In this document: positions 1,456-61,860 of the stretch, piece after piece
How positions within the stretch are numbered: position 1 is the stretch's first letter
How the letters are laid out: every line of letters starts with the position of its first letter
Origin: Halosolutus gelatinilyticus
GTDB taxonomy: Archaea > Halobacteriota > Halobacteria > Halobacteriales > Natrialbaceae
Direction: 5' to 3'
Length of the DNA: 64,000 bases
Assembly (NCBI RefSeq): GCF_023028105.1
Contig: NZ_CP095491.1
Span: 1,426,001-1,490,000, forward strand
Position numbers and translations under genes: made by a program
Notes under the pieces: model-generated
Database searches by the model: none
Told to the model about the DNA's origin: nothing
What the model saw: only the letters and a program-made list of their open reading frames with translations

Positions 1456-4400
1456 CTAGTCGGACGCTTCGGCGGCCGCCAGCGGCTCGATCGCGATCAC
1501 CATCTCGACGCCCTCGACCTCCCACTCCTTGCGGTGGCCGTCCTCGACGCTTCGAAGTTCGTCGGCGCGAACTTCCTCGCGGATAAGGGATTCGCGATCG
1601 GCGACCAGGTCGGCGACGCGATCGTCGTCGATCTCGAGTTCGAGTGCGATCCGTTCCTCGACGTCGAGATCGAGGTCCTTGCGCATCTCCTGGACGCGGC
1701 GGATGACCTCGCGGGCGTAGCCCTCGCTCTCGATGTCCTCGGTCAGCGAGGCGTCGACGTAGACGACGCCGCGATCGTCGCCGTTGAGTCCGAACGCGGT
1801 GCCGGCGACGTCCTCGGGCGTCTGGCTGACAAAGGAGATCATCTCCTCGGTGATCTCCTCGTCGTCCTCCAGGACGTCGGCGACGGCGTCCTCGATCGCC
1901 TCCACCGCGGGTTCCTCGATGCGGGCCTCGTTGAGCGCGTTCATGACCCGTCCGGCGCGATCGCCGAACGCCGGCCCGAGTTCGCTCATGTCGGCCTCGG
2001 CGCTGTACCGGAGTTCGCCCCAGCGCTCGTCGGGTCTGACGAGTTCGACCTCGCGCGCGTTGAGTCGATCGGCGAGCAGGTCGCCGTGGCGCTCGACCGC
2101 TTCGACGACCCGATCGTCGTCGGCCGCGACGACGACCCGCGGGACGGGCCAACGAAGCTTCCGGCCGGCCTGCTGGCGGGCGTTCGCGCCGGCCTCCTCG
2201 ATCGCGCGCAGGAAGGCGACGTCCTCCTCGAGTTGTTCGTCCGCCCAGTACTCGTCGATCGCGGGCCAGTCGCACATGTGGACGGTGTCGAACCCGGCGT
2301 CGCCGGTCAGCGTCCCGTAGATCTCGTCGCTGACGAACGGCGCGTACGGCGCGAGCAGGACGACGCTCTCGCGGAGCACGTGGTAGATCGTGGCGTACGC
2401 GGCCCGTTTGGACGCGCTGTCTTCCTCCTCCCACATCCGTTCGCGGACGGCCTGCACGTAGAACCGGGAGACGTCCTCGACGACGAACTCGAGCAGGGCG
2501 TCGAGCGCGCGGTCCTGGCGGTAGTCCTCGAAGTGCTCGGTCATCTCGGCCTTCGTGGACTGCAGTCGGGCCAGCACCCACTCGTCGACGAGTTCGAGGT
2601 CGTCATCAACGTCCTCCAGCGTCACCCCGGCGGTTTCACCGTCGTCTCGCGGCTTTGCCGCTCGACTGTCCGCGGAACGGCGTTCCGCGCTACCTCCGTC
2701 CCGTTGCGACGGAGTCGCAATGCCCGGCTCGAAGCCGTCCAGCCGCATGTACGGCAGCGGGAATCGGAAGACGTTCCACAGCGTCCGCAGGTGATTCTCC
2801 ATCGTCTGCATCCCCTCCCAGGAGAAGCGCATGTCGTCGCCCTGCGGGTTGTTCGACAGCAAGAACATGCGCATCACGTCCCGACCGTGGCGATCGATCG
2901 CCTCGTGGGGGTCGACCAGGATGTCCTTGGACTTGGACATCGCGCGGCCGTCGGGCATCTGTGCGAAGCCGTGCATGAGGACGGTCTCGTAGGGGATCTC
3001 GCCGACCGCGGCGGTTCCCATGCCGAGTTGTGACCAGAACCAGCCGCGGGTCTGGTCGTGGGCCTCGATGATGAGGTCCGCGGGCCAGAGTTCGTCGAAC
3101 CGGCTGTCGTCTTCGGGGTAGTCGAGGGTTCCCCACGACGCCACGGAGGAGTCGAGCCAGACGTCGAACACGTCGGGAACGCGCGTGTATGTGGTGCCGT
3201 CCTCGGTGATCGTGAGGTCGTCGACCGTGTCCTTGTGGAGATCGACCTCCTCGGGGTCGACGTCCTGGTCGACCCGCTCGGCCAGTTCCTCGCGCGTGCC
3301 GACGACGATCATGTCCTCGTCGTCGTCGCGGTCCTCGGGGGTCCAGACCGGCAGCGGGATGCCCCAGTAGCGCTGTCGCGAGACGTTCCAGTCGGGCGCC
3401 TCCTGGACGAAGTCGTGGAAGCGGTTGTCGCGGGCCCACTCGGGGTGCCACTCGCTATCCTCGATGTTTTCCAACAACTCGTCCTTGACGTCGGTGATCG
3501 TGATGAACCACTGCTCGGTGACGATCTGGATGATGCCCGTATCGCAGCGCCAGCAGTGGCCGTAGCTGTGGTGGACCGTCCCCGACGCGAGCAGCGCGCC
3601 GTTCTCCTCGAGATCCGCGGTGATCTCTGGGTCGGCGTCCTTGACGAACTGCCCAGCGTACTTGCCGGCCTCCTCGGTGTAGACGCCGTCGCTGCCGACG
3701 GGACAGAAGATCGGGAAGCCAAGTTCGCGGCCGCGGAGGAAGTCCTCCTCGCCGTGACCCGGCGCGGAGTGGACGAGGCCCGTCCCGTCGCCGTCGGTCT
3801 CGACGTAGTCAGCCGCGTAAACCTCGAAGGCGCCCTCGGCGTCGACGCGGTCGGGAACCTCTTCGGCGAGCGGGTGCTCGTACGACCAGCCGATCAGATC
3901 CTCGCCGGTCAGCTCCTCGACCACCTCGTAGTCCTCGTACCGGCCCTCCCGCAGGACCTCCTCGTGCTTGGCCTCGGCGACGTACAGCAGTTCCTCCTCG
4001 CCGTCTTTCTCGGCGCGAACGCCGACGTAGTCGCCCTCCCCGTCGACGGCGACGAACGTGTTTGCGGGGATCGTCCACGGCGTGGTCGTCCAGATGACGA
4101 TCGCGCCATCGCGGTCTTCGAGATCGAACGTGACGTAGATCGAGGGGTCCTCGACGTCCTCGTACTCGACCTCGTTGTTCGCGATGGCCGTTTCGCAGCG
4201 CGGACACTGCGAGATCGATCGGTGCCCCTTCTCGACGAGGCCGCGCTCGGCGGCCTTCGCGAAGCCCCACCAGGCGGCCTCCATGTACTCGGGACTGAGC
4301 GTCTTGTACGGATTCTCCCAGTCCATCCAGACGCCGAAGTCCCGGAAGTCAGACTGGAGGCCCTCGAGTTGCTCGTTGGCGTAGTCCTTGCACTCTTGGA

Positions 4401-6393: not shown

Positions 6394-6813
6394 ATGAGTA
6401 CGATCTTCAGTCAGATCGTCGAGGGAGAGATTCCCGCGCGAATCGTGTACGAAGACGAGACGACGGTCGCCTTCCTGGACGCGAACCCGCTCGCGCCCGG
6501 ACACACGCTGGTCGTCCCGAAAGACGAGTACGAGCGACTGAACGACGTTCCGGAGGGTGTCGCTGCGGACCTGTACGCGACGATTCACCGGCTGGTCCCC
6601 GCCGTCGAGGAGAGCGTCGACGCCGACGCGACCACCGTCGCGTTCAACAACGGCGAGGCGGCCGGCCAGGAGGTCCCGCACGTCCACTGTCACATCGTCC
6701 CCCGATTCGAGGGCGACGGCGGCGGCCCCATCCACGCCATCGCCGGCGATCGACCCGACCTCGCGGACGACGAACTCGACGAGATCGCCGCCGACATCGA
6801 ATCGCGCGCCTGA
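6394..6813 (+). CDS. HIT-family nucleotide hydrolase/transferase
   Basis: A 139-residue cytoplasmic protein of the histidine-triad superfamily, in the Hint/HinT-like branch, which hydrolyses or transfers nucleoside phosphates. The family start IFSQIVEGEIPARIVYED is followed by the catalytic triad motif HVHCHIVPR near residues 99-107. The length matches a single-domain HIT protein. The physiological substrate is unknown. The gene is followed by the structured repeat at 6858-7034. Confidence 0.93.
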   Translation: MSTIFSQIVEGEIPARIVYEDETTVAFLDANPLAPGHTLVVPKDEYERLNDVPEGVAADLYATIHRLVPAVEESVDADATTVAFNNGEAAGQEVPHVHCHIVPRFEGDGGGPIHAIAGDRPDLADDELDEIAADIESRA

Positions 6814-6857
6814 GTCGATCGCTTCGGTGAGTACTGATAGAAGCGTAGCGAGTACGG

Positions 6858-7034
6858 ACACTACGAAAGCCCCTGGCGCTCTCGGCGGCTGCGACTCGCT
6901 GCGGTCCTCACTCCGTTGCGGTCCTTACGTCGTCTTGCACATCGAGGGCGCCAGCCCCTTTCAGTCCCGCCCGCGGTGGCTTCTCGACCAGCCGGTACGG
7001 GCGGGGATGAAAGGGGCAAGGGCTTTCGTAGTGT
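6858..7034. repeat. 177-bp element folding as a three-way junction
   Basis: Outer stem: perfect 15-bp inverted repeat ACACTACGAAAGCCC (6858-6872) with 7020-7034. Second stem: 6873-6884 with 6943-6954, 11 of 12 identical, the mismatch becoming a G-U pair in one strand. Third stem: 6955-6973 with 6998-7016, 17 of 19. The stems abut with no unpaired base between them except three bases at 7017-7019. The loop of the second stem holds two near-identical 16-nt direct repeats around TTGCGGTCCT. No coding capacity is evident. It resembles either a MITE-like palindromic element or a structured RNA; no target-site duplication was seen. Confidence 0.7.
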
Positions 7035-7117
7035 TTCCAAACGTCGTAGATAACCCACTGTACGTAACGTCAGCGAAGTGCCGTGACCCTTTTGCCGATC
7101 GCCTGCGAGCGGTGCGT

Positions 7118-61813: not shown

Positions 61814-61860
61814 CCGCCGCGGAAGTCCTTGCCGAGCCCTTTCGTTCCCGTCCGCGGCGG
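61814..61860. repeat. Hairpin with CCGCCGCGGA / TCCGCGGCGG arms
   Basis: A perfect 10-bp inverted repeat (61814-61823 with 61851-61860) and a 27-nt loop. The section AGCCCTTTCgTTCCCGtCC resembles the third stem of the three-way-junction element (AGCCCCTTTCaGTCCCGCCC). It lies 52 bp after the PiT stop and 69 bp before the next gene. Confidence 0.5.

What the first reader, a model, noticed from the sequence alone, without database searches (positions are those of the whole stretch)
6858..7034. 177-bp element that folds into a near-perfect three-way junction
Three nested or adjacent inverted repeats abut each other with only three unpaired bases at the junction: outer stem 15/15 bp, second stem 11/12 (the exception becomes a G-U pair), third stem 17/19. 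One loop carries two tandem 16-nt repeats. So exact a layout with wobble-type changes suggests selection on an RNA, or a mobile palindromic element copied as a unit. It sits between the HIT and small-membrane-protein genes and codes for nothing. Part of one arm recurs in degraded form at 61814-61860.
Basis: partly seen in the sequence, partly recalled or inferred. Interest (0 to 1): 0.7.

Follow-up and report, generated by a model that had tools for sequence, protein, structure and literature searches.

The report
Mobile hairpin element of salt-loving archaea
The 177 bases are an old, partly deleted copy of a small transposable element found in most salt-loving archaea; other copies show that it was most likely spread by an IS6-type transposase, and it carries a hairpin whose pairing has been kept while its sequence changed almost completely.

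Summary
The geometry is confirmed: stems of 15, 12 and 10+9 bp, three junction bases, z -9.3. It is not unique: about 35 places in this genome, none in a predicted gene. A model of its main hairpin ('A') hits 110 of 146 genomes of the order and none outside it. Same-genus genomes have empty sites. The parent form is an inverted dimer (outer stem, A, B, A'), a four-way junction; the window copy lost the A' hairpin, leaving GAAAGCCC-TT-GCCCC. In Natronococcus pandeyae and a second family, dimers have terminal inverted repeats like those of haloarchaeal IS6 elements and 8-bp target duplications (13 of 20 copies match at 7-8 of 8 bases; shuffled control 0). So: a MITE moved by IS6-family transposase. 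The core's pairing is truly conserved (86% Watson-Crick against 40% shuffled). Single-A copies sit about 500 bp upstream of a plasmid RPA-like gene, always in the same orientation. Mobile element: supported. Free-standing RNA: not shown; mispairs favour the opposite strand. Function of the core is open. The window copy's own ends and target duplication have decayed.

The parts
6858..7034 (+). structured core: three-way junction (outer stem, hairpin A, hairpin B)
   Evidence: matches about 35 places in the own genome
6858..6872 (+). 5' arm of the outer stem, inner part of the left terminal inverted repeat
   Evidence: 15/15 pairs with 7020-7034
7020..7034 (+). 3' arm of the outer stem, inner part of the right terminal inverted repeat
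6865..6972 (+). A unit: GAAAGCCCC, variable-stem hairpin, GCCCCTTTCAGTCCCGCCC
   Evidence: model R1, 102 bits, E 1.8e-21
6874..6953 (+). hairpin A, covarying stem with conserved loop motif CTCGCTGCGGTCC...TTGCGGTCCTT
6954..7017 (+). hairpin B, the tail-to-tail junction of the inverted dimer
6999..7027 (-). remnant of the second, inverted A' unit with its hairpin deleted (GAAAGCCC-TT-GCCCCTTTC)
   Evidence: model R1 25.9 bits, E 5.5e-4; sequence
7017..7054 (-). right terminal inverted repeat, degenerate
   Evidence: terminal-repeat profile match, E 8e-5
6827..6875 (+). left terminal inverted repeat, degenerate (GTGAGTACT conserved); full element probably about 6810-7075
   Evidence: weak profile matches E 0.45 and 0.0047; limits inferred by comparison with relatives

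Best explanation
It is a decayed copy of a non-autonomous transposable element (MITE) of haloarchaea. Shown in relatives: the element is about 240-340 bp when its core is kept, with two inverted half-units, each a terminal repeat plus a conserved hairpin unit (A), joined tail to tail; its tips match those of haloarchaeal IS6-family insertion sequences and it makes 8-bp target duplications, so an IS6-family transposase supplied in trans most likely moves it by acting on the terminal repeats. Shown for the window copy: family membership, empty orthologous sites, deletion of the A' hairpin. Inferred: that the window copy itself was inserted by IS6 transposition, since its tips and target duplication have decayed. 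The A hairpin is under a structural constraint that IS6 transposition does not need. I infer that it acts as folded single-stranded DNA or RNA, probably on plasmids, where a single-A form sits upstream of an RPA-like gene, and that the dimers are captured copies.
For: About 35 diverged places in one genome, all 34 analysable ones outside predicted genes and in every gene arrangement. HIT-to-membrane-protein gaps without the element in same-genus G001 and G002 and in several further genera. N. pandeyae: 13 of 20 copies with flanks matching at 7-8 of 8 bases, shuffled pairs 0. Second family: 307-308 bp elements with tips GGCAGTGTTTAGTT/GGCGGTGTTTAGTT and GGCGGTGTTTAGTT/GGTCGTGTTTAGTT and perfect duplications GAAAGAAT and ATCGAGGA. 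IS6 elements L229 and L222 have the same or nearly the same tips with 8-bp duplications, and the own genome has one with such tips (L227). The transposase of L222 passes the NCBIfam IS6 cut-off, 197 against 125 bits. Literature: IS6 elements make 8-bp duplications and IS6 MITEs are known (PMC7986276, PMC6807381). Terminal repeats in the own genome are related to those of N. pandeyae.
Against: The window copy has no readable target duplication and its tips match weakly. No autonomous element sharing more than the tips was found. Several lineages carry the A unit with other flanks, so IS6 ends are not the only setting. IS6 transposition does not explain the covariation.
Confidence: 0.77

Rival explanations
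1. A free-standing or cis-acting structured RNA family (sRNA, leader, terminator) conserved for its fold.
For: Strong compensatory change: 86.4% Watson-Crick at stem positions 2-10 against 40.0 +/- 2.3% for shuffled arms, 91 clusters; repeated on new loci, 89.5 against 40.4%. The closing stem changes in step (GAAAG/CTTTC, CAAAG/CTTTG, GGAAG/CTTCC, GAACG/CGTTC).
Against: No preferred orientation to neighbouring genes in the own genome (7 same, 11 opposite among tandem pairs; 12 divergent, 4 convergent). Not in Rfam. Mispairs on the strand read are A-C 48 against G-T 16 and 13 against 2, the reverse of what an RNA from that strand would give.
Confidence: 0.15
2. The ancestral core is a single-strand-active control or replication site of haloarchaeal plasmids, for example a single-stranded promoter or primer site for an RPA-like gene, as Frpo does for ssb on plasmid F. 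Dispersed copies are captured versions. (Compatible with the MITE reading of the dispersed copies.)
For: In 13 of 19 annotated plasmid loci the A unit lies about 450-600 bp upstream of a 285-300 aa OB-fold protein, same orientation; in 14 of 30 OB loci drawn from genomes it is detected, always at that place and orientation. The space between is conserved and apparently non-coding. The wobble-tolerant strand would be the template strand of that gene.
Against: The plasmids are typed non-mobilizable, the MPF_T label given to many of them is a software call, the strand bias is not significant in the OB-linked copies alone (9 against 5), and no transcription data exist.
Confidence: 0.2
3. Chance palindrome, or a hairpin produced only by copying errors that perfect inverted repeats, without selection.
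For: Template switching can perfect palindromes (own knowledge). Hairpin interiors are found inverted in a few copies (L161, L175, L184).
Against: z -9.3; order-wide conservation of the same architecture and of tail and loop motifs; strand-biased mispairs.
Confidence: 0.05

Closest known systems
IS6-family MITEs (MITEHarch3, MITEBth2 in ISfinder; PMC6807381, PMC7986276)
   Same: No transposase gene, IS6-type tips, 8-bp target duplication expected, listed sizes 227 and 336 bp
   Different: I could not compare sequences, so MITEHarch3 may be this very family; no conserved covarying core or plasmid RPA-gene link was seen described
Haloquadratum MITEs, PATEs and SMRs (PMC3119063)
   Same: Abundant transposase-free repeats of haloarchaea
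   Different: PATEs lack terminal repeats and target duplications; SMRs cause no target duplications; no Haloquadratum element was compared by sequence
Frpo single-stranded promoters of plasmid F (PMC9849209)
   Same: Conserved non-coding region with a stable hairpin upstream of an ssDNA-binding protein gene
   Different: Archaeal, no promoter activity or conjugation shown; also dispersed on chromosomes
Bacterial REP/BIME repeats
   Same: Dispersed intergenic palindromes, singly and as inverted pairs
   Different: Here 8-bp target duplications and IS6-type tips; a RAYT partner was not looked for

Membership tests
IS6-mobilised MITE | No transposase gene | tested here: met
   No recognisable coding sequence in the element
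IS6-mobilised MITE | Terminal inverted repeats matching an IS6 element | tested here: met
   In relatives. In the window copy only degenerate repeats
IS6-mobilised MITE | 8-bp target duplication | tested here: met
   In relatives. Not readable at the window copy
IS6-mobilised MITE | Multiple copies and empty sites | tested here: met
IS6-mobilised MITE | Moves when IS6 transposase is present | not testable with these tools
   Needs an experiment
Structured RNA family | Compensatory base changes | tested here: met
Structured RNA family | Transcript from a defined strand | not testable with these tools
   No expression data; indirect mispair test points to the other strand
Structured RNA family | Match to a known Rfam family | tested here: not met
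PATE / IS200-IS605 derivative | No terminal repeats, no target duplication | tested here: not met
   Both are present in well-preserved copies of relatives
Frpo-like single-stranded promoter | Promoter activity of the folded single strand | not testable with these tools
   Only position and orientation upstream of an RPA-like gene shown

The most novel reading that the evidence does not exclude
The A unit is an order-wide single-strand-active DNA signal of haloarchaeal plasmids, folding on the template strand upstream of an RPA-like gene to start transcription or priming when the plasmid is single-stranded. Transposons have captured it, doubled it as inverted pairs and spread it through chromosomes.
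Probability: 0.15. Interest if true: 0.88.

Novelty: new variant of a known kind. Interest (0 to 1): 0.6.

Why it matters
A covarying hairpin present in most genera of an archaeal order, without an Rfam match here, implies a shared function on single-stranded DNA or RNA that has not been assigned. Its fixed place upstream of a plasmid RPA-like gene gives a direct entry point for experiments, and its ride on IS6-type ends explains how it spread. Even if it is only a parasite, it annotates dozens of intergenic regions per genome.

Tried and rejected
Known RNA: no Rfam match at gathering score; sub-threshold hits are chance. tRNA: none. Virus or phage origin: no match in phage records or IMG/VR. 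IS1595 transposase as mover: no match in the own genome or in N. pandeyae. An autonomous copy between N. pandeyae ends: none among 23 loci. A terminal-repeat pattern from the second family found nothing in 41 relatives, so that end sequence is lineage-specific. Gene-regulatory role of chromosomal copies: no orientation preference.

Full report
OBSERVATION. The three stems, the three unpaired junction bases and the wobble pairs are as described. The fold energy is far outside shuffled sequence on both strands (z -9.3 and -7.9). The region lies between the HIT gene and a 75-residue membrane-protein gene and is not recognisably coding.

COPIES. The own genome holds about 35 places, mostly 70-90% identical over the matched part, all on contig C1 and none on the other contigs. 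In 34 copies analysed with a simple codon-usage gene finder none overlaps a gene; neighbours are tandem 18, divergent 12, convergent 4, and the element points with or against tandem genes 7 and 11 times. A pattern scan of 84,980 species gave 103 stretches; every record listed is haloarchaeal. In a sample of 197 genomes across the phylum every genome with a match belongs to the order. The DNA matches 32 haloarchaeal plasmids and nothing in phage records or viral contigs.

ARCHITECTURE. The common unit is GAAAGCCCC, hairpin A, GCCCCTTTCAGTCCCACCC. Many lineages carry a single unit. Natrialbaceae and other families also carry two units inverted, tail to tail, so that the tails pair as hairpin B and the outer repeats pair as an outer stem: a four-way junction. 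Smaller forms have lost one or both A hairpins. The window copy is such a form: its A' half reads GAAAGCCC-TT-GCCCCTTTC. That the dimer is ancestral to the window copy is inferred from this remnant.

MOBILITY. The HIT gene is followed by the same small membrane-protein gene without the element in same-genus G001 and G002 and in further genera. In N. pandeyae the copies share about 50-bp terminal repeats with tips GGCCGTGTTCA and GACGGTGTTCA; 13 of 20 copies have flanks matching at 7 or 8 of 8 bases within one position, against none of the shuffled pairs. In a second family two 307-308 bp dimers have perfect 8-bp duplications and tips of the form GGCGGTGTTTAGTT and GGTCGTGTTTAGTT. IS6-family elements of these archaea have the same or nearly the same tips and 8-bp duplications (L229, L222), and the own genome carries one with GGTCGTGTTTAGT at both ends (L227). 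The L222 transposase is IS6 by NCBIfam. IS6 elements make 8-bp duplications, and two IS6 MITEs are listed in ISfinder, one of them MITEHarch3, probably haloarchaeal by its name (PMC7986276, PMC6807381). Own-genome copies have related but decayed terminal repeats; I could not read a target duplication at the window copy.

STRUCTURE UNDER CONSTRAINT. Between 91 clusters of A units the 5' stem arms are only 40% identical, yet 86.4% of pairs at positions 2-10 are Watson-Crick, against 40.0 +/- 2.3% when arms are shuffled. A second set, mostly from other genomes, gives 89.5 against 40.4%; its units were kept only if at least 5 of 11 stem pairs formed, which raises that figure somewhat. The closing stem also changes in step. 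Mispairs on the strand written here are A-C far more often than G-T (48 to 16; 13 to 2), so the wobble-tolerant strand would be the complement. Caveats: the first set was partly fetched with a pattern fixing GAAAGCCCCTG and CAGCCCCTTTCA, the set was filtered for at least 6 of 10 pairs, related copies are not independent, and a strand-biased mutation process could mimic the bias.

PLASMID CONTEXT. In 13 of 19 annotated plasmid loci, from about eleven genera, a single A unit lies about 450-600 bp upstream of a 285-300 residue OB-fold protein, in the same orientation. The protein resembles replication factor A below the curated cut-offs. Of 30 such genes drawn from genomes of the order, 14 show a detectable A unit, all at that place and orientation. 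The space between is conserved and has indels that break any frame. This recalls Frpo upstream of ssb on plasmid F (PMC9849209), but only position and orientation have been shown.

VERDICT. A MITE moved by IS6-family transposase is the best reading of the element. The covarying core is something more than the vehicle needs; its role is open.

Noticed in passing
L021, L024, L028, L032, L040, L045 (A-unit loops): A second palindromic repeat (GTTCGAGAGAGC..GCTCTCTCGTGATCACGAAAGGCGC..GCGCCTTTCGAAC type) is nested inside the loops of some A units, with arms that vary but stay self-complementary.
   Followed up: no
L161, L175, L184: The interior of hairpin A is inverted relative to its stem in a few copies, as if the loop had flipped between the inverted arms.
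   Followed up: no
L106, L112, L151, L189, L134, L056: Single-A copies are preceded by one or more extra CAGAAAGCCCC-like motifs spaced about 45-70 nt, in one case an exact tandem repeat with identical spacers.
   Followed up: partly
L241-L259, about 3100-3600: About 450 bp of strongly conserved, apparently non-coding sequence between the A unit and the plasmid OB-fold gene, across several haloarchaeal families.
   Followed up: partly
L094, L109, L122, L180-L191, L307-L309: A GGCTGGGGAGG / CCTCCCCAGCC module flanks the A unit on either side in other subfamilies and may form an alternative outer stem.
   Followed up: no
window 61821-61853: Weak match to the A-unit model (15.4 bits, E 0.14), possibly a hairpin-less remnant.
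   Followed up: partly
own genome, contigs C2-C4: None of the roughly 35 copies lies on the smaller contigs, although these make up about 18% of the assembly.
   Followed up: no
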